Source: Phycisphaeraceae bacterium
GTDB taxonomy: Bacteria > Planctomycetota > Phycisphaerae > Phycisphaerales > Phycisphaeraceae
Assembly (NCBI GenBank): GCA_029260655.1
Contig: JAJDCU010000036.1
Span: forward strand, 1 to 34,302
Direction of reading: 5' to 3'
DNA: 34,302 nucleotides
The position numbers and the translations under genes are program-made. The notes under the pieces were generated by a model, which had not been told where the DNA came from, ran no database searches, and saw only the letters and a list, made by a program, of their open reading frames with translations. The first letter of the stretch is position 1; the number at the start of each line of letters is the position of its first letter. Positions 25,542 to 34,302 of the stretch are shown one piece after another.

Positions 25542-26489
25542 CTAGCTGGCGTTGCGTTTCGCGGCGCCGTCGGAGCCACCTTTGACGCCGTTGTTAGCAC
25601 CACCTTTGGCACCATCCTTGGCGTCGCCTTTAGGCTCACCGTTTTGTCCGCCGTTGTTGCCGTTCTGGTCGCGTCGCTCGAACTGGCGTGCGGCGATCTC
25701 CAACCGATCCGCGACCTGGACCATCGTGTCCGGGCGTTTGGGCGCGTCGGTCTGGATGCAGTCCATGACCAGGCTGGACAGGGCCGGGGGCACCAGCTCG
25801 TTCACTTCGATCGGGGTTTTGCAGGTGTCCTCGGTTCGCAAGCTGATCCCGGCGGAACCTTTGGGGATCAGGGTCGGCACGTGCTTGCTGGTCAACAGCC
25901 AGTACATCGTCGCGCCCAGGTTAAAGACATCGGTCTGCGGCGTGATGCTGCGGCGCTGCACTTGCTCGGGGGCGATGTAATCGGGCGTGCCCTGGATCCG
26001 TTCCTTGACCGTCCCGATCGGGCAGCTCTGGCCGAAGTCGATGATCTTGATGTGCCCCTTGTCTGTGATCATGATGTTGTTGGGCTTGATGTCGGCGTGG
26101 ACGTACCCGCCCTTATGCATCACGCCCAGGCCCTGGGCAACCTCTCGGCAGAGCTGGCACAAGGCCCCCAGGTTCTCGGGCTGGTGCTTCTCCAGGGTCG
26201 CGCCGTCGACCATCTCCATCAGCACAAGGATCTCGCTGGTGCGGATGAAGTTGCGCTGACGGATCAGCTTGATGCTTTTACGGAGGGTGGGGTGATCGAA
26301 CTTCTGGGCGACCTCGTGCTCGGAGATCGCCTGGTCGACGAATCGCTGGTCGCTGGGCGAACTCTTGACCACGCGCTTGAGCGCAAAGAGCTGGCTCTTG
26401 CCGTCTTTGACGGCATAGATGGTGCTCCGCGCCCCAACACCAAGCGTTGCAAGGACTTCGTACCCGAGGATTTCACTGAACTCGGCCAT
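25542..26489 (-). CDS. Hanks-type serine/threonine protein kinase
   Basis: The protein is 315 aa from ATG 26489; an in-frame GTG lies at 26522. Kinase landmarks: glycine loop LGVGARSTIY (16-25), ATP-binding Lys38 in FALKRV, a helix-C glutamate near 57-59, catalytic VHADIKPNN (His131-Ala132-Asp133, Lys135, Asn138), metal-binding Asp151 in DFGQ, and YIAPE at 171-175. Ala replaces Arg of the HRD motif, so this is a non-RD kinase, which in other families means no need for activation-loop phosphorylation. There is no transmembrane segment or sensor domain; the last roughly 40 residues are a hydrophilic Gly/Asn/Lys/Asp tail. It precedes the DUF4159 gene by 246 bp, in which I see no gene. Substrates are unknown. 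Confidence 0.92.
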   Translation of the reverse strand: MAEFSEILGYEVLATLGVGARSTIYAVKDGKSQLFALKRVVKSSPSDQRFVDQAISEHEVAQKFDHPTLRKSIKLIRQRNFIRTSEILVLMEMVDGATLEKHQPENLGALCQLCREVAQGLGVMHKGGYVHADIKPNNIMITDKGHIKIIDFGQSCPIGTVKERIQGTPDYIAPEQVQRRSITPQTDVFNLGATMYWLLTSKHVPTLIPKGSAGISLRTEDTCKTPIEVNELVPPALSSLVMDCIQTDAPKRPDTMVQVADRLEIAARQFERRDQNGNNGGQNGEPKGDAKDGAKGGANNGVKGGSDGAAKRNAS

Positions 26490-26956
26490 AACATCGCACG
26501 GGCAGGATGAAACGGGATGCACCTAAAAAAAGTATGCGCAAACCGTCACAACGCCCTATATCCCCCGCCAGATTGTCCGAATAACCGAATAAAACTATGT
26601 CCCTACTGTATACGACGGCCACCCATCACACAACGGCCAGCCCGGTTTTAATCGTCCCACACATGGGAAAACTTGATCTCCCGGGCCTTTATTCGCCTAA
26701 CCTCATCGCTTTGAGGGGCCTGACCCTGCCCCCTGCCCCTGCCCCCTGCCCCCTGCCGGGTTGTAGTCGCAGACACCGCCGGCCCATGGCAGGTGTAACG
26801 CACTAGAGCGCTCAATATTGACCCCGAAACCCCGCAATTGACTGTCCGCACGATTAAGCCGGCATCCCGGCCGACAGGGGCATAAGTGCGGTCATAGGCA
26901 TCCCGCCGGCGGTCTCGGCGGACCGTGCCGTGGGGATGGAGGGTGCTACAGGTGGA
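26490..26956. other. Intergenic region without a supported gene
   Basis: About 470 bp between two minus-strand genes. The stretch next to the kinase is AT-rich on the plus strand (AAAAAAA at 26525-26531) and may hold its promoter. The middle contains a C/T-rich tandem repeat. The remaining GC-rich part has the repeated phrase GGCATCCCG but no open frame with protein features. No clear terminator was found. Confidence 0.5.
26724..26757. repeat. Short tandem repeat, unit CCCCCTG (6-7 bp)
   Basis: The stretch consists of five imperfect copies of CCCCCTG/CCCCTG in a row in intergenic DNA. Copy number of such tracts is often unstable. The minus strand is G-rich (runs of four to five G), so it could form a quadruplex-like structure. 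Confidence 0.7.
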
Positions 26957-28114: not shown

Positions 28115-28996
28115 CTATCGATGATCAATCCGCCCCGTCGCCCCCATCAGTTCATCCATGACGCCCCATTGCCGCCGGACCACTCGCCAGGTCGCCGCCC
28201 ACAGCCAAAGCAGCACCCCCGCCCACCCCAGCGCCCCCGCCATCGGCAGCCAAACCGTCTCCCACCTCCCGGCTACCCAGCCCAGAGAGACCAACCCAAA
28301 GAACACACCGAACATCCCCACCAACACAACCAGCGCCAAGACCCAACACCGCTCGAGCCTGCGCCAGGCGTCCGTCAACAACCTGTCTCCTGCGCGCTGC
28401 GCCACGATCCGAAGATACCGCCAGGCCGACAGTAGCCCCAGCAGATACATCGCGTGCGCGAAAAGAAACAGCACATCAAACGCCGGCACCCCCGGTATCC
28501 CCGGCGCCCCCGCCCCGCCGGGTTGCCATTTAATATCCCAGCTCCCAAACAGCTTCTGCTCGCCAAACAACACCGCCGCCACCGCGCCCAACAGCAGCAG
28601 CAACAGCATCGCCGCCCCAACCATCGTCCCAACCCGCGCCCCGACCCGGTAGCCCCGATCTAACGCCGGCTCCACCCGACCCGGCTGCGCCCGCGTCAAT
28701 AACCAAAACCCGTAAGCCGACACACACACACCCACATATACGATCGGCAGAGCCACGAACACCGACGCACGCAGCCACCACGCCCCCCGCCAAAGCCCGC
28801 CAAGCCAATCCGCCGGCGCGCTGGCCAACCGGTCACCCCGGGCCGACACCACCACCAGCATCCCGCACTCCGGACAACTCGCCGATAGCGCAAGCGTCCG
28901 CAGGTTGTACCCGCACTCGGCGCACACCAGGTCTCCCGCAATCCGCCCGTCGACGATTGGGGCGATTTCAGTGATGGGTGCTCTGGACGAAGACAT
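28115..28996 (-). CDS. Zinc-ribbon multi-pass membrane protein of unknown function
   Basis: The protein is 293 aa from the ATG at 28996; the open frame upstream to 29203 runs through a non-coding repeat and is rejected. Residues about 25-50 are a zinc ribbon (CAECGYNLRTLALSASCPECG), the form seen at the front of many planctomycete membrane proteins. About six hydrophobic segments follow, with a glycine/proline-rich loop (PGGAGAPGIPGVP). Function is unknown. The minus strand has TATTAT seven bases before the ATG and no Shine-Dalgarno sequence. Between its stop and the small lipoprotein (27909-28114) I see nothing firm, only a 35-codon open frame at 27998-28105. Confidence 0.75.
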   Translation of the reverse strand: MSSSRAPITEIAPIVDGRIAGDLVCAECGYNLRTLALSASCPECGMLVVVSARGDRLASAPADWLGGLWRGAWWLRASVFVALPIVYVGVCVSAYGFWLLTRAQPGRVEPALDRGYRVGARVGTMVGAAMLLLLLLGAVAAVLFGEQKLFGSWDIKWQPGGAGAPGIPGVPAFDVLFLFAHAMYLLGLLSAWRYLRIVAQRAGDRLLTDAWRRLERCWVLALVVLVGMFGVFFGLVSLGWVAGRWETVWLPMAGALGWAGVLLWLWAATWRVVRRQWGVMDELMGATGRIDHR

Positions 28997-29003
28997 GCCA
29001 GAG

Positions 29004-29009
29004 ATAATA
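29004..29009 (-). promoter_or_regulatory. -10-like box directly ahead of the zinc-ribbon gene
   Basis: The minus strand reads TATTAT, then CTCTGGC, then ATG (28996). A transcript starting seven bases after the hexamer would begin at the start codon. No good -35 is visible. Confidence 0.35.
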
Positions 29010-29068
29010 CGAGCCGCCAACAAGGCCGGTTCGTATCGGAAGCAAAAGAGATTCCGAAAAAGAACGGT

Positions 29069-29193
29069 TTCACCACAGAGGCGCCGAGGCCGCAGAGAAA
29101 ACCGCGGAGGGGTAGGTGTCCACAAATTGCGCAGATGACGCAGACTAAGAACCGGCGAGCAAACGTACGACTCCCCATCTGCGCAATCCGCGG
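29069..29193. repeat. Intergenic repeat-like element with inverted repeats
   Basis: The left part reads TTCACCACAGAGGCGCCGAG then GCCGCAGAGAAA, a phrase type (CACAGAGGC...GCAGAGAAA) that I recall from dispersed intergenic repeats of several bacterial phyla. The right part has TTGCGCAGAT (29127-29136) and its exact reverse complement ATCTGCGCAA (29177-29186) around a 40-base loop, each near a CCGCGG. It fills the gap between two minus-strand genes. Confidence 0.5.
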
Positions 29194-29215
29194 ATACCGT
29201 CACTCCGGCGGATCA

Positions 29216-30214
29216 TTATTTGTCGTTATCCATAACCAGCCGCTTCGCCTCGATCAGGCCGCCGGCCAGGCCGATGAGCAGGGTCGTGACAGCGAAGACA
29301 AGAAGCGAGAACGCCAGAGCGTCTTCGTTCTCTATCCCGGGGTAGGTCGTCAACAGCAGCAGTGCCGCCCCCTCGCGCAGACCCAGCCCCGCCACGCTGA
29401 TCGGGATCATCGTCGCCAGGATCATCGCGGATCGTATCCACCCGATCGAGACTAACGACAGCTCCAACCCAAGCGACTGGCTCAGCAGGTACCAGCCGGC
29501 CACGCCCATCAGGTGGGCCGCGACCGAGAGGGTGTAGACCAGGAAGGTTTGCCGACCTGAGAGTTGGCGAGAGTCTCGGACGGCCTGGCGCAGTGTGTTC
29601 AGCCTGACCCCGCCGAGTTTGCCGACCATGCCGCGTAGTTTCGAAACAACCGGGCCGGGCGACCGGTCGAACAGGATCACCAGCGCCAAGACCATGACGA
29701 GCAAGGCTGAGAGGATCGCAACAAGCGCCTGCCATGACCCGTCGGGGCGCTCCAGCATCCAGAACACCGCGCCCAGCGCGCACAGTGACACGGTTGCGGC
29801 GATGCGGTCGTAGAACAAGGCCACGGCGGTGCCCAAGTAATGCTTATGATCGCCGGAGAGTTTGTAGAAGCGTATGGCGATGCCCGTGAAATTGCCGCCG
29901 GGCAGGAACAATCCGTAGAAGCGGGTCGCGAGGTTGATCTGGAAGATCTGCCCGGTACCCCAGCCGTGCCCGTGCGCGTTACAGAGCCGCCTGAGTCGGT
30001 CTGCGGTGGACCATTGCATCAGGAGAGCCAGGGCCGCAGCGCCCAGCACGAGAGACCAACGTGCGGTCGTGATTGTGTCCCACACATCGGTGATCGGGAC
30101 CTTGTAGAACAGCACCGCCAGGACCGCCAGACCGATCACGACGCGCAAGAGCCTGCCCCACAGCGGCTTTCGTCTAGCCGGTCCGGCGTCGGTCTGCGTC
30201 GGCGCCTTAGGCAT
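29216..30214 (-). CDS. Lysylphosphatidylglycerol-synthase-TM / UPF0104-like membrane protein
   Basis: The protein is 332 aa with about eight membrane helices. ATRFYGLFLPGGNFTGIAIRFYKLSGDHK matches the conserved core of the LPG_synthase_TM family (the flippase-like half of MprF and related proteins such as archaeal AglD), and PISVAGLGLREGAALLLL is the typical second motif. These proteins move or shield lipids across the membrane; no catalytic aminoacyl-transferase domain is attached. ATG at 30214 lies six bases after the stop of the phosphodiesterase-like gene, so it is the last gene of a tight operon. Its lipid substrate is unknown. Confidence 0.87.
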   Translation of the reverse strand: MPKAPTQTDAGPARRKPLWGRLLRVVIGLAVLAVLFYKVPITDVWDTITTARWSLVLGAAALALLMQWSTADRLRRLCNAHGHGWGTGQIFQINLATRFYGLFLPGGNFTGIAIRFYKLSGDHKHYLGTAVALFYDRIAATVSLCALGAVFWMLERPDGSWQALVAILSALLVMVLALVILFDRSPGPVVSKLRGMVGKLGGVRLNTLRQAVRDSRQLSGRQTFLVYTLSVAAHLMGVAGWYLLSQSLGLELSLVSIGWIRSAMILATMIPISVAGLGLREGAALLLLTTYPGIENEDALAFSLLVFAVTTLLIGLAGGLIEAKRLVMDNDK

Positions 30215-30220
30215 GGCTCG

Positions 30221-31486
30221 TCACGCCCCCGCGGCGGAGACGTCGACCGCCCGATTGTTTGGGATGAACACGGCCCGGCCGGTCATATGCTCGGCGGGCC
30301 GTTCGCCCAGCAGCGACATGACGGTCGACGCGAAGTCGGTAAGCAGCATCGGTTCGTCCGTCACGTCATACCCCTTCTCGCCCATCACGAGGTACCCCTC
30401 CTCGGAGGGGTGGTCAGGCAGGTGGCCGTGGTTTCCGCGGTGGCGGGCGCTACGCAACCGTGGCCGCAGCAGCCGGTCTGTGAGCCCCAGGAAGAGGTTC
30501 GCCAGGGGGTTGTAGAAGTCGTGCGGGAAGAATGTGTGCCCGTGGTCCGCGAAGCAGTAGAGTTCACCGTGGCGCGGGTGATCGAAGCATATCCCGTACT
30601 CGTGCATCTGCCGGTGCGTATGCACGGAGGTGTGCTCGAGGCCTTCGAGCAGTCGGGTAATCGCGATGCGGGCGCGCTCGGTCTTGAACCAGAAGCGCAC
30701 GGCGGAGACCTCCGCGAAGTAGACGTACTCATCACGGGGGACGCCGCTATGCTTGAGCAGCCTCTTGATATTGACCGACGAACGGATCGGCTCCTGGCCG
30801 TGGTCGACCAACAGCATCATCGTCACCCCGACCTCCCGGCAGCGCGCGTGCAGCCGTTCAATGAAGCCGTCGACGTAGCGGAGCTTCTCCGTGGTCTTGT
30901 CCATCTGGTCCAGGTGCCAGTGCGAGTACAGGTCGAACCCGTAAAACTCGACGAAGTCCAGCCGCTTACCCGCGCGTGGGAAGATACTCAGTCCTTTTTC
31001 CATATCAATGAAGTGCTTGCAGAAGACGTAACCGGCGTCCTTGGGCCCCAGCTCGTGGAGGATCGATGTGTGGCCGCCGATCTCGTCCAGGCACTTGGGG
31101 TCGGTCTCCCTTCGTGTGTACTTCATCCGGTGTTGATTGAACTGGCGTCGACGCCGCCAGGGCACGGCGGGCAGGTCGTTGCTGCTGTCGATCAGGTGCA
31201 TGAAGCACTGAGCGGTTGTGGTGACGCTGTCGGGCAGGAGGTTCAGGAACTTGCTCATCGCCGACAGCGGCGCGTCGTCTTTGAGGCTGACCTGCCAGAT
31301 CAGGTTCTTGTGCGGCCCGACCCCGGTCAAGAGCGTGGGGGTCAGCTCGGTGCTGGGGATGGTCCGCATGCGGCAGGATGGATAGTCTTGCAGCAGGCCG
31401 TGGACATAGGGCGTGTGCTCCAGCCCCACGCGCCGACGGTCAAGCCCGGGCACGTAGCACACAAAGAGTTTCGTCGTGTCCGACAT
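30221..31486 (-). CDS. Type I phosphodiesterase/nucleotide pyrophosphatase-like protein (alkaline phosphatase superfamily)
   Basis: The protein is 421 aa; GGAG lies five bases before the ATG at 31486. No signal peptide is seen, so it is probably cytoplasmic. Alkaline-phosphatase-superfamily metal sites are visible: VPGLD near the N-terminus, STELTPTLLTG with a candidate Thr nucleophile, FYGFDLYSHWHLDQ (Asp and His), LLVDHGQE (Asp-His), and RGNHGHLPDHPSEEGYLVMGEKGY (last His). The middle is longer and more divergent than in typical nucleotide pyrophosphatases. It sits 15 bp after a glycosyltransferase gene and 6 bp before a flippase-like gene, suggesting a phosphate-ester step in lipid or glycan-lipid metabolism. 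The substrate cannot be read from the sequence. Confidence 0.82.
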   Translation of the reverse strand: MSDTTKLFVCYVPGLDRRRVGLEHTPYVHGLLQDYPSCRMRTIPSTELTPTLLTGVGPHKNLIWQVSLKDDAPLSAMSKFLNLLPDSVTTTAQCFMHLIDSSNDLPAVPWRRRRQFNQHRMKYTRRETDPKCLDEIGGHTSILHELGPKDAGYVFCKHFIDMEKGLSIFPRAGKRLDFVEFYGFDLYSHWHLDQMDKTTEKLRYVDGFIERLHARCREVGVTMMLLVDHGQEPIRSSVNIKRLLKHSGVPRDEYVYFAEVSAVRFWFKTERARIAITRLLEGLEHTSVHTHRQMHEYGICFDHPRHGELYCFADHGHTFFPHDFYNPLANLFLGLTDRLLRPRLRSARHRGNHGHLPDHPSEEGYLVMGEKGYDVTDEPMLLTDFASTVMSLLGERPAEHMTGRAVFIPNNRAVDVSAAGA

Positions 31487-31501
31487 CGAGTCTCCATCAT
31501 G

Positions 31502-33112
31502 TCACGGCGTTTCTGGGTCCGAGAGTGTCTGGCCCACTGGGCCCCAGCGGAAGGCCTTGACGCCCGTGGCTTGTGGAAGTTCTATCGGCTGTGTGTGGTT
31601 CTGGATGTATAAAGCCGTCTCGGTGGGGACGAACCACCGGGCGCCGAAGTGGTCCGCCTCGATCACGATCAGCCCTGATGGGTGCTCCTGGATGAGGCGT
31701 TGAACCGACTCGGCCGTGGTAATGACCGGCCTGCCCGTAATTCTATGGTCCGTGAACTCATCCCGGCCGGCGGCCTGGCTGACGCTGAGTTCCACGTCGA
31801 GTCGCCCAAGGTAGTAGACCGCCTTGGGGGGTTCCGAGCAGACGACGAACCGTGTCTCCCGGGCGATCGACTCGAGCGTCTTGGCGGCAGTCGTCCAGTC
31901 CTCCCGGGCGTACGGCCCAAACGCCTGACCGGTAAGCATCTTCCGTGACAGCTTGTACTCGGGACTGACCCACGCGGCGCATAGCAGCCCGAACACCAGG
32001 AACGCCCACACCGCATGGCCGACCCACCGGCGTAACGCAAAGGGCTCGCCGAACACCTGCCCGAGCACCGACCTCGCCGAGGTGTGCAACCACAAAAGCA
32101 GCCCGTCCAGCGCGATCGCCCACAAGGCAAAGAAGAAAGGCCAGGCGTATGCCAGGTACCGCATGTTCTTGAAGGGCATCAACGAATGGATGATCAACGC
32201 GGCTACAAATACGACCAGACAGAACCAGGCCGGTCGCCTCCTTGTCGCCAGCGCCGCCACCGCCGCAAAGATGAACCCCGTCCATAGAAGCGGGTACGAG
32301 TCGCCGAAAAAACGGTGGTAGTAGGCGACCTCGCCGCGCTGCGGTATCGACCACAGCCGTGGTGTCTGAAATTTCTCGACCATCTGCGACAGCGCGCCGC
32401 TGAACTCAAGGCCCAGCCAGACGGCCGGGACGCCTGCCGTTATGACCAGCACCAGCCACACGACGGCCCGTCGGCGCTGCTCCCGGTCGCACCGTACCAG
32501 TAGCCCCACGAACTCGGACCCCGCCCAGAGCGTCAGCACCAGCGCGGCGATCGCCGTGGTCGTCTGAAGATGCCACGCCAAAAGCCCGCAGACCAGTGCC
32601 AGCGCGCCTACCACGATCCGGCCCGTGCGCGCCAGTTTGCCTGTCACGATCGCGTACACACACACCGCCGTCAGCCAGACCAGCAGCGCGTGGGGCATGT
32701 AGAACCGGACCATCGAGGAGAACCCGATCACGTCCGATGCCATCCCGAGCAGGAATGCGCCGATCCACGCAGCCCGTCGACCCGCCACGCGCCCAAGCCA
32801 GCCGAACACCGCCGTGACCAGCAGCGCCCCGGCGAGAAGCGACGGCAGCCGCGCCGACGCCCAGCTCTCGCCGAACAACCGGTAGCAGGCCGCGACCGCG
32901 TAGGTGTACGCCCTGGCCCGTGTGTACGGACCGCCGCCCTCGTTAATCATCAGCGTCCCGTCATCGACCAGCGACCGGGCCGACAGGACGTGCAAAAACT
33001 CATCGATGTGGGGCGTCGGGCTGATGAACTGGGACATGACCGCCAGCGCGATGACGAAAACCGCCAGCATCTCGAGGCAGGTCACTACGAGGCTGGGCCG
33101 GCTGTTTTCCAT
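31502..33112 (-). CDS. Multi-pass membrane glycosyltransferase, GT39-like (GT-C fold)
   Basis: The protein is 536 aa from the ATG at 33112; the frame is open to a TTG at 33157 and the start is uncertain. About ten membrane helices are seen. The first outer loop has SPTPHIDEFLHVLSARSLVDDG with acidic residues at the catalytic place, followed by GPYTRARAYTYAVAACYRLFGESWASARLPSLLAGAL, the arrangement of GT39/PMT-2-type enzymes. SLMPFKNMRYLAYAWPFFF resembles the R-Y motif near the later helices. A soluble C-terminal domain of about 140 residues follows. It is the first gene of a three-gene operon with the phosphodiesterase and flippase-like genes. Confidence 0.8.
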   Translation of the reverse strand: MENSRPSLVVTCLEMLAVFVIALAVMSQFISPTPHIDEFLHVLSARSLVDDGTLMINEGGGPYTRARAYTYAVAACYRLFGESWASARLPSLLAGALLVTAVFGWLGRVAGRRAAWIGAFLLGMASDVIGFSSMVRFYMPHALLVWLTAVCVYAIVTGKLARTGRIVVGALALVCGLLAWHLQTTTAIAALVLTLWAGSEFVGLLVRCDREQRRRAVVWLVLVITAGVPAVWLGLEFSGALSQMVEKFQTPRLWSIPQRGEVAYYHRFFGDSYPLLWTGFIFAAVAALATRRRPAWFCLVVFVAALIIHSLMPFKNMRYLAYAWPFFFALWAIALDGLLLWLHTSARSVLGQVFGEPFALRRWVGHAVWAFLVFGLLCAAWVSPEYKLSRKMLTGQAFGPYAREDWTTAAKTLESIARETRFVVCSEPPKAVYYLGRLDVELSVSQAAGRDEFTDHRITGRPVITTAESVQRLIQEHPSGLIVIEADHFGARWFVPTETALYIQNHTQPIELPQATGVKAFRWGPVGQTLSDPETP

Positions 33113-33482
33113 AAGAACCCACTGCAACCCCCGTCCGAACAGGGCCGAAAGCCTCAAAAGCCGCCTGGCAGAAGTGGTCTATAAAAACGACGTCGCGTGG
33201 ACAGACGGCCAGGACACCGACGGCACCGGGCGGGCGTCGCTTAGGGCTGCTCCGATCAAGGCCTGACCCGGTTCACAAGCCTACCCTTGCACCGGGCCCG
33301 GCCGCCTGTCCTCGCGACGGTTGTCGGCGGGCCGCCTAAGCAACCTGCCGACCCATCAGGGACGAGAAACGATAACCACCGGGGATAAGGCTGGCAAATC
33401 CCTTGGCCTTTGGCGTGTTTGGGCGTATGCTTTAGCAATATATCTCGTCGGGGTGCGTACATCTATATAAGGATCGCAATTT
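33113..33482. other. Divergent intergenic region
   Basis: About 370 bp between the minus-strand glycosyltransferase operon and the plus-strand PIN-domain gene. It contains no supported gene. The right third is AT-rich and holds a candidate promoter and a ribosome binding site AAGGA at 33469-33473 for the PIN-domain gene. The left part presumably carries the operon promoter, but I could not identify it. Confidence 0.55.
33403..33431 (+). promoter_or_regulatory. Candidate sigma-70-type promoter of the PIN-domain gene
   Basis: TTGGCC (33403-33408) and TATGCT (33426-33431) each match four of six consensus bases with an exact 17-bp spacer. The predicted start near 33438 gives a leader of about 45 nt containing AAGGA nine bases before the ATG. 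Confidence 0.45.
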
Positions 33483-34302
33483 ATGATTCTATACATCCTG
33501 CGTGGGGCTTTCATCCTCCTTGCCTCGGCTGTCGCGTCGCTTTACCTGCTGTCAAACCAGTGGGGCGCGAACGTTGACTTTCCTAAGTTTGTTTTGATCC
33601 TGGGCGTGACGGTCGGGCTCAGCGCGGCGATCATCACCATCGACGCGGCGACCCGCCACAAGAAGCTGTCCGCGATCTCCGGGGTCTTCCTGGGCCTGGT
33701 CGCCGGGCTGCTCGCCGCCTTCGCCCTGTCGTTCGTGGTGGACCTGATCGGCGTGCTGACAGCGCCAGACAATGACCCGGGGCGGGCGGCGTTCCTGAAC
33801 CTGCTGCGCGGGGTCAAGGTGGTCATCGGCCTGATCACCTGCTACATGGGCATCTCCCTGGTGCTGCAGACCAAGGACGACTTCCGCTTTGTGATCCCCT
33901 ATGTAGAGTTCGCCAAGGAGATCCGCGGCAGCCGGCCCATCCTCCTGGACACCTCGGTGATCATCGACGGGCGTATCCTGGACATCATCCAGACCCAGGT
34001 GATGCAGGGAACGCTGATCGTCCCCAAGTTCGTCCTCAACGAGTTACAGCAGATCGCCGACTCGAGTGACAAACTCAAGCGGGCGCGTGGTCGCCGTGGC
34101 CTGGACATGCTCCAGAAGCTGCGGGAAAACCATGTCGTCGAGGTGGTCATGGACGATACGGATGCGGAAGGCACGGTCGTCGATCAGAAATTGATTTCGC
34201 TGGCCCTGCAGGTCCGAGGCCGGGTGATGACCAACGACTTCAACCTCAACAAGGTCGCCACGCTGCGCGGCGTGGACGTGATCAACCTCAACGACTTGGC
34301 CA
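33483..34302 (+). CDS. PIN-domain membrane protein, YacL-like (partial, runs off the window)
   Basis: The frame is open from ATG 33483 (AAGGA nine bases upstream) through the last base, 273 codons without a stop. Four hydrophobic segments occupy the first roughly 125 residues (ILRGAFILLASAVASLYLL; VLILGVTVGLSAAIITI; GVFLGLVAGLLAAFALSFVV; VIGLITCYMGISLVL). A PIN nuclease domain starts at RPILLDTSVIIDGRILDI with the first metal-binding Asp, then FVLNELQQIADSSD (Glu, then DKLKRARGRRGLDML) and VDQKLISLAL...VMTNDFNLNKVA with the later Asp residues. This is the layout of Bacillus YacL-type proteins, which usually end in a TRAM RNA-binding domain that would lie beyond the window. Likely a membrane-linked RNase; the target is unknown. 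Confidence 0.9.
   Translation, partial: MILYILRGAFILLASAVASLYLLSNQWGANVDFPKFVLILGVTVGLSAAIITIDAATRHKKLSAISGVFLGLVAGLLAAFALSFVVDLIGVLTAPDNDPGRAAFLNLLRGVKVVIGLITCYMGISLVLQTKDDFRFVIPYVEFAKEIRGSRPILLDTSVIIDGRILDIIQTQVMQGTLIVPKFVLNELQQIADSSDKLKRARGRRGLDMLQKLRENHVVEVVMDDTDAEGTVVDQKLISLALQVRGRVMTNDFNLNKVATLRGVDVINLNDLA

What the first reader, a model, noticed from the sequence alone, without database searches (positions are those of the whole stretch)
29216..33112. Tight operon: GT39-like glycosyltransferase, phosphodiesterase-like enzyme, LPG-synthase-TM protein
Gaps of 15 and 6 bp show cotranscription. A membrane glycosyltransferase, a soluble alkaline-phosphatase-superfamily enzyme with divergent middle region and a flippase-like protein could together make and export a phosphorylated or glycosylated lipid. 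I do not recognise a named pathway with this trio. It is my best candidate for an undescribed system in the window.
Basis: partly seen in the sequence, partly recalled or inferred. Interest (0 to 1): 0.55.

Follow-up and report, generated by a model that had tools for sequence, protein, structure and literature searches.

The report
Rare three-gene envelope sugar-transfer cassette
Three neighbouring genes that probably work together to attach a sugar to a lipid or polysaccharide on the outside of the cell form a rare cassette found in a few planctomycete bacteria and in one distant lineage, and its middle enzyme does not fit the known versions of such systems.

Summary
On the minus strand lie a polytopic glycosyltransferase (31502-33112), a soluble NPP-fold hydrolase (30221-31486) and a PF03706 flippase-like protein (29216-30214), with gaps of 15 and 6 bp. 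The trio is real but rare. The hydrolase occurs in 8 of 101 relatives, in 3 of 397 genomes of the class and in 2 of 387 of another lineage's phylum. Where it occurs, a PF03706 gene follows it directly in 9 of 10 loci, spanning two groups that RpoB places far apart. The first gene differs: a GT-C enzyme like ArnT in Phycisphaeraceae, a DUF6798 membrane protein without detectable similarity in the other lineage. One genome has the hydrolase alone. Predicted folds match ArnT/ALG12 and ENPP/NPP enzymes. The hydrolase keeps the Ser/Thr nucleophile position and five metal ligands, lacks the usual first Asp and has an invariant Arg/Lys-rich stretch. Best reading: a variant of the multi-component transmembrane glycosylation systems, with an NPP-type hydrolase where those have a polyprenyl-phosphate-sugar synthase. 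Substrates and function are inferred.

The parts
31502..33112 (-). Polytopic GT-C glycosyltransferase (ArnT/PMT/ALG12-like fold), 536 aa; D37-E38 in the loop after the first helix invariant in 7 of 7 relatives
   Evidence: PMT_2 below cut-off; alignment; model pLDDT 80.9, pTM 0.80; fold matches
30221..31486 (-). Soluble NPP/ENPP-fold hydrolase of the alkaline phosphatase superfamily, 421 aa, no signal peptide or membrane segment by hydropathy
   Evidence: PF01663 24.2 bits; model pLDDT 77.1, pTM 0.80; ENPP/NPP matches; hydropathy; conserved residues
29216..30214 (-). PF03706 / TIGR00374 flippase-like integral membrane protein, 332 aa
   Evidence: 103.4 bits; TIGR00374 47 bits over cut-off 43.2
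33113..33482 (.). Region between the trio and the divergent PIN-domain gene; probable place of the operon promoter (a TTG start at 33157 lies in it)
   Evidence: one search lists one 9-of-12 sigma-70-like site on the minus strand inside it (33397-33369) and one at its edge (33514-33486); consensus matches only

Best explanation
The three genes form one operon that adds a sugar to an envelope glycan or lipid on the outer face of the inner membrane. Proposed steps: (1) In the cytosol the NPP-fold hydrolase cleaves a phosphodiester or phosphate ester on a membrane-bound, negatively charged precursor, probably a polyprenyl-phosphate-linked (phospho)sugar, using a Ser/Thr nucleophile and a two-metal site, with the Arg/Lys-rich stretch holding the substrate. 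(2) The PF03706 protein flips the trimmed lipid-linked sugar across the membrane. (3) The GT-C enzyme uses its Asp-Glu pair to transfer the sugar to an acceptor outside. The donor would be charged by one of the GT2 enzymes encoded elsewhere in the genome. In the second lineage a DUF6798 membrane protein takes the place of the GT-C enzyme. Shown: gene order, conservation, predicted folds, conserved residues. Inferred: every catalytic step, the direction of transport, and the substrates.
For: Same three-gene order in 7 of 8 hydrolase-bearing relatives, and hydrolase then PF03706 in 9 of 10 loci over two RpoB-distant groups. Flippase matches of 371 bits or more occur in 7 of 101 relatives, all with the hydrolase; the next match is at 84 bits. 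GT model matches ArnT with undecaprenyl phosphate and ALG12 (VIA Z 24.6 each), enzymes with lipid-linked donors. Hydrolase model matches ENPP/NPP (Z 26.1-27.8); S/T45, D185, H189, D228, H229, H353 kept in 10 of 10, and R112-R114, R120, K122, R125 invariant in 10 of 10. Published three-component systems pair a flippase with a GT-C enzyme, and one includes a phosphatase module acting on undecaprenyl-phosphate-ribose-5-phosphate (PMC8035078 and PMC11127046, passages seen). GT homologues without the hydrolase lie beside WecG in L138; a distant one in G013 lies between a PF03706 gene and WecG. 28 GT2 matches in the own genome.
Against: No substrate evidence of any kind. The fold match does not choose between phosphodiesters, pyrophosphates and phospholipids. 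The usual first metal Asp is Val/Ile in 10 of 10, so activity is not assured. One of 10 hydrolases (G013) has no neighbouring partner. The first gene of the second lineage is not detectably related to the GT, so step 3 may not be general. No donor synthase lies in the operon. The loci are not independent (five from one genus, two from another).
Confidence: 0.45

Rival explanations
1. Glycolipid route: the hydrolase trims a phospholipid head group on the cytosolic side, the PF03706 protein flips the resulting lipid, and the GT-C enzyme glycosylates that lipid outside. The flipped molecule is the acceptor, not the donor.
For: Best fold matches include the phospholipid-acting ENPP7, ENPP6 and autotaxin; the sister clade A7 matches ENPP7 best by sequence, E 8.7e-8. 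ArnT, the top Foldseek match of the GT, glycosylates a lipid. The PF03706 family is named after the lipid-handling MprF region.
Against: AMP-bound and nucleotide-acting ENPPs are tied in Z with ENPP7. GT homologues without the hydrolase lie in polysaccharide-type loci.
Confidence: 0.22
2. The hydrolase is a side enzyme: it destroys or recycles a nucleotide sugar or a misloaded lipid-linked sugar in the cytosol, while GT and flippase alone do the glycosylation.
For: NPP-fold enzymes include nucleotide pyrophosphatases. GT homologues work without the hydrolase in 6 of 14 relatives with a strong GT match.
Against: The cognate flippase is found only with the hydrolase (7 of 7), and their adjacency outlasts exchange of the first gene, so the hydrolase looks tied to the flippase.
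Confidence: 0.15
3. The middle protein is a catalytically dead or strongly altered NPP-fold protein that binds a lipid-linked substrate or the flippase and regulates or escorts the cargo.
For: The first metal Asp of the sister clade (D12) is Val/Ile in 10 of 10; an unusual invariant basic stretch.
Against: Nucleophile position Ser/Thr and five other metal ligands are kept in 10 of 10, and D16 is invariant and near enough to stand in, which is unlikely in a dead enzyme.
Confidence: 0.1
4. The genes are neighbours without a shared function.
For: G013 holds the hydrolase alone; GT homologues occur without it; five of the ten loci come from one genus.
Against: Hydrolase-flippase adjacency holds at 35-38% hydrolase identity in a lineage outside the window's phylum by RpoB, with 4-bp overlapping reading frames.
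Confidence: 0.05

Closest known systems
Multi-component (three-component) transmembrane glycosylation systems, e.g. GtrB/GtrA/Gtr* and CsbB/GtcA/YfhO (PMC8035078, passages seen)
   Same: A flippase-type membrane protein encoded with a GT-C-fold enzyme
   Different: Flippase is PF03706, not GtrA- or Wzx-type; no GT-A polyprenyl-phosphate-sugar synthase in the operon; a cytosolic NPP-fold hydrolase instead
Pentofuranose three-component system of Citrobacter O antigens and mycobacterial arabinan pathway (PMC11127046, passages seen)
   Same: A cytosolic phosphohydrolase step before flipping, then a GT-C enzyme outside
   Different: There the phosphatase is HAD-type or Rv3807c, the flippase MATE- or SMR-type, and a polyprenyl phosphoribose synthase is encoded alongside; none of these was found in this operon
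ArnT (GT83), aminoarabinose transferase to lipid A
   Same: Closest solved fold by Foldseek (5f15, E 1.1e-8; VIA Z 24.6)
   Different: About 15-17% identity; no sequence-level match in the PDB search; the rest of the arn pathway was not searched for
NPP/ENPP phosphodiesterases (Xac NPP, ENPP2, ENPP4-7)
   Same: Fold, Ser/Thr nucleophile position, five metal ligands
   Different: First metal Asp not at the usual place; no signal peptide; invariant Arg/Lys-rich stretch; PF01663 score barely over the cut-off
EboF of the ebo operon (PMC5133447, passages seen)
   Same: A PF01663 enzyme of unknown substrate in a small conserved bacterial operon
   Different: The ebo genes as described there include no GT-C or PF03706 gene; EboF matches PF01663 with high confidence, this protein barely. 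No EboF sequence was compared

Membership tests
Multi-component transmembrane glycosylation system | GT-C-fold glycosyltransferase | tested here: met
   Predicted fold
Multi-component transmembrane glycosylation system | GtrA- or Wzx-type flippase (as listed in PMC8035078) | tested here: not met
   The only transporter-like gene of the trio is PF03706
Multi-component transmembrane glycosylation system | GT-A polyprenyl-phosphate-sugar synthase encoded in the operon | tested here: not met
   No GT2 gene in the trio; 28 GT2 matches elsewhere in the genome, some synthase-like by eye
Multi-component transmembrane glycosylation system | Sugar is transferred outside the cytoplasm from a polyprenyl-phosphate donor | not testable with these tools
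   Needs biochemistry
NPP/ENPP branch of the alkaline phosphatase superfamily (PF01663) | NPP fold | tested here: met
   All 50 listed VIA-align entries are ENPP/NPP-type enzymes, Z 26.1-27.8
NPP/ENPP branch of the alkaline phosphatase superfamily (PF01663) | Ser/Thr nucleophile | tested here: met
   S or T at 45 in 10 of 10, aligned by hhalign with invariant S42 of clade A7
NPP/ENPP branch of the alkaline phosphatase superfamily (PF01663) | Six metal ligands incl. the Asp after the first strand | tested here: inconclusive
   D185, H189, D228, H229, H353 in 10 of 10; usual first Asp is V/I12; D16 invariant but its role unproved. Ligand assignment by analogy and motif, partly recalled
LPG_synthase_TM / TIGR00374 flippase-like family | Sequence match over the curated cut-off | tested here: met
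   PF03706 103.4 bits against 33.4; TIGR00374 47 against 43.2
LPG_synthase_TM / TIGR00374 flippase-like family | Lipid flipping activity | not testable with these tools
   Not shown here for this protein
ArnT / GT83 | Sequence membership | tested here: not met
   Profile of 7 GTs finds no ArnT chain among PDB sequences up to E 1
ArnT / GT83 | L-Ara4N transfer to lipid A | not tested
   No search for the rest of the arn pathway was made

The most novel reading that the evidence does not exclude
A new kind of transmembrane glycosylation module whose core is a cytosolic NPP-fold hydrolase paired with a PF03706 flippase: the hydrolase edits the lipid-linked cargo and so licenses its flipping, while the outer-face enzyme is interchangeable (GT-C in one lineage, DUF6798 protein in another). 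The cassette has moved between phyla.
Probability: 0.2. Interest if true: 0.68.

Novelty: new variant of a known kind. Interest (0 to 1): 0.42.

Why it matters
Many PF03706 proteins have no known cargo (recalled). A flippase whose close relatives were found only with a soluble hydrolase would let the cargo be found by assaying a soluble enzyme, which is far easier than assaying a flippase. It would also show that outer-face glycosylation in bacteria can include a head-group-editing hydrolase of the NPP type, known mainly from secreted or surface enzymes (recalled). Envelope glycan chemistry of Phycisphaeraceae is little known (recalled).

Tried and rejected
A single-sequence search of the hydrolase against PDB sequences found nothing meaningful. 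Its alignment profile found only short C-terminal matches to phosphoglycerate mutases, best E 0.0039, read as shared superfamily and not function. The GT profile found no solved relative by sequence.

Viral contigs, phages and plasmids hold no relative of the hydrolase at those sensitivities, so there is no evidence of carriage by a mobile element.

EboF was considered because a paper search brought up the ebo operon. It was set aside because the described ebo genes include no GT-C or PF03706 protein; no EboF sequence was compared.

The zinc-ribbon ORF 28115-29203 was considered as a fourth gene. Rejected: only a short zinc-ribbon stretch finds relatives, and in L012 the next gene after the flippase reads by eye as UvrA.

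Long plus-strand ORFs opposite the trio (for example 29840-31612, 590 aa) are read as chance frames of GC-rich coding DNA; not tested further.

The DUF6798 protein was tested as a hidden GT relative by HMM and hhalign without success. An earlier 420-bit match was circular, as that profile contained the sequence. An Asn-Glu pair after its first helix (by eye) is suggestive only.

The many weak phylum-wide matches (E 1e-3 to about 1e-5, short stretches) were taken as general superfamily matches and not counted. In some searches only 4 candidates per genome were scored, so absences there are less certain than.

A scan for promoters and terminators gave only consensus matches and no support for the operon's ends.
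Full report
OBSERVATION. On the minus strand the window holds three ORFs in order: 31502-33112, 30221-31486 and 29216-30214, with gaps of 15 and 6 bp. The window is the whole of contig C36 of a 3.5 Mb, 83-contig assembly, 95% complete. Pfam gives PF03706 for the last gene (103.4 bits), PF01663 for the middle one just over the cut-off (24.2 against 23), and only a sub-threshold PMT_2 match for the first. NCBIfam adds TIGR00374, flippase-like, for the last.

IS THE TRIO CONSERVED? With the hydrolase as a single query, 8 of 101 relatives match, all in the window's family: the window's genome, 4 of the 5 other members of its genus, two genomes of a second genus (44-45% identity) and G013 (37%). 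A profile found only G000 and G018 at full length among 392 genomes drawn from the phylum, and 3 of 397 drawn from the class. In 7 of these 8 the order is GT, hydrolase, flippase. It is complete in the window, L012, L013, L014 and L016. In L017 the contig ends inside the flippase gene. In G004 the contig ends 65 codons into the flippase gene, and another contig of that genome starts inside the same gene with 14 shared residues. In G013 the hydrolase lies beside a SecA-like ORF (by eye) with neither partner. The sixth genome of the genus, G001 (76% complete), has only a GT fragment at a contig end, with the PIN-like gene beside it.

A SECOND LINEAGE. A scan of named genomes returned 7 loci: six MAGs labelled Phycisphaeraceae, Phycisphaerae, Phycisphaera or Planctomycetota, and one 'uncultured bacterium' (L026, LaPlata_bin-2000; G462). 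L026 and a relative of it, G503 (L084), carry a three-gene row with 4-bp overlaps: a polytopic membrane protein, the hydrolase (38% and 35% identity to the window's) and a PF03706 protein. Profiles built without L026 find its hydrolase (505 bits) and flippase (139 bits), and those of L084 (461 and 151 bits), but not the first gene. That first gene is a DUF6798 protein, and hhalign gives 0.1% probability of relation to the GT. Only these two of 387 genomes drawn from that lineage's phylum have the hydrolase. An RpoB tree of 20 genomes (21 searched, one without a match) places G462, G503 and three of their relatives apart from all 15 genomes of the window's phylum, with 100/100 support on a long branch. 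Their phylum is not named. A hydrolase tree groups G013's orphan copy with G462 and G503 (100/100) and not with its own family. This suggests transfer between lineages, but the program warns of long branches for L018 and L084 and of unusual composition in L026.

CO-OCCURRENCE. With the flippase profile, matches of 371 bits or more occur in 7 of 101 relatives, all holding the hydrolase; the next match has 84 bits (threshold E 1e-15). With the GT profile 15 of 101 match at E 1e-10: 14 at 265 bits or more and G013 at 53 bits. Seven of the 14 hold the hydrolase, one is G001, and six do not. So the hydrolase and the cognate flippase go together, while the GT is more widely used. L138, a GT without the hydrolase, has WecG (183 bits) directly after it. 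In G013 (L143) the distant GT relative follows a PF03706 gene and precedes WecG (188 bits). L140, L141 and L142 look polysaccharide-related by eye; L137 and L139 do not. The ten hydrolase loci are not independent: five come from one genus, two from a second, and G013, G462 and G503 form one branch.

GLYCOSYLTRANSFERASE. The AlphaFold model has pLDDT 80.9 and pTM 0.80. Foldseek's best match is ArnT with undecaprenyl phosphate (5f15, E 1.1e-8). VIA-align gives Z 24.6 both to ALG12 (rmsd 4.2, 413 aligned) and to ArnT (rmsd 4.6, 431 aligned). D37-E38 in the loop after the first helix are invariant in 7 of 7; the catalytic role of such an acidic residue in GT-C enzymes is recalled.

HYDROLASE. All 50 listed VIA-align entries are ENPP/NPP-type enzymes at Z 26.1-27.8, so the fold is clear but does not choose a substrate. 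A sister clade of about 385 aa (A7) bridges it to ENPP7 by sequence: A8 against A7 by hhalign 99.5%, E 2.4e-22; A7 against ENPP7 E 8.7e-8. Ten of ten cassette-type hydrolases have S or T at 45 and D185, H189, D228, H229, H353, and also D16, R17, R18, R112-R114, R120, K122, R125; H119 and R126 are kept in 9 of 10. Literature passages give Thr as the ENPP nucleophile and Ser in ENPP6 and alkaline phosphatases (PMC11677397). Where the sister clade has an invariant Asp (D12), this family has Val or Ile in 10 of 10; the register there is my own reading, as hhalign starts at column 23. By hydropathy 8 of 9 hydrolases scanned have no membrane segment; L026 has one borderline internal segment at 390-408, read as part of the fold. 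The protein is therefore taken as cytosolic.

FLIPPASE-LIKE PROTEIN. An ordinary PF03706 membrane protein; a PGGN segment is invariant in 7 of 7. Two other PF03706 proteins lie elsewhere in the genome.

CONTEXT OF THE SISTER CLADE. None of 16 loci with A7-type or similar distant enzymes carries the trio's flippase or GT by profile (9, 7). Beside one of them, L085, a weak nucleotidyltransferase match was found (E 0.0031, under its cut-off), and in L091 a GT4 and a polysaccharide pyruvyl transferase gene lie nearby. So the wider family is used in glycan loci, but the trio is specific to the cassette clade.

MECHANISM. The anatomy matches the logic of multi-component transmembrane glycosylation: a lipid-linked donor made in the cytosol, a flippase, and a GT-C enzyme outside (PMC8035078, passages seen). 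Here the cytosolic gene of the operon is an NPP-type hydrolase and not the donor synthase. A known parallel is the pentofuranose pathway, in which a phosphatase module acts on undecaprenyl-phosphate-ribose-5-phosphate before flipping (PMC11127046, passages seen). I therefore propose that the hydrolase edits the lipid-linked cargo. The donor synthase would be one of 28 GT2 matches elsewhere in the genome, some of which look like polyprenyl-phosphate-sugar synthases by eye. All enzymatic steps are inference.

NOVELTY. Paper searches on DUF6798 (0 papers), on the trio's family names and on the flippase family listed no paper on such an operon; apart from the papers named above only the listings were read. 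PMC7801869 was opened for GT-C motifs and gave only general passages. The library holds only open-licence PubMed Central papers. I file it as a new variant of a known kind: it works like a transmembrane glycosylation module, but two of that family's features were tested and not met (flippase type, synthase in the operon), so I do not call it a member.

Noticed in passing
L026:6376-7965 and L084:8224-9762: DUF6798 (PF20604) polytopic proteins as first gene of the cassette in the second lineage; no paper in the library holds the term DUF6798, and an outer-face enzyme function would be new.
   Followed up: partly
L058, L059, L062, L063, L085-L089, L091: A sister clade of about 385-aa NPP-type enzymes, sequence-related to ENPP7, in glycan-type neighbourhoods of several lineages; no known substrate.
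   Followed up: partly
L143:6073-9495 (G013): A PF03706 gene directly followed by a distant relative of the GT and by WecG, away from G013's orphan hydrolase: a flippase-GT pair without the hydrolase.
   Followed up: partly
window 33483-34301: Divergent gene for a membrane-anchored PIN-domain protein, 86-88% identical and beside the GT in L012, L014 and L015.
   Followed up: no
window 28115-29203; L012:12144-12701; L019: Membrane proteins with an N-terminal CxxCGYNLR-type zinc-ribbon recur near these loci.
   Followed up: no
window 25542-26522: A serine/threonine protein kinase (PF00069, E 4.7e-39) with a Gly/Asn-rich C-terminal tail.
   Followed up: no
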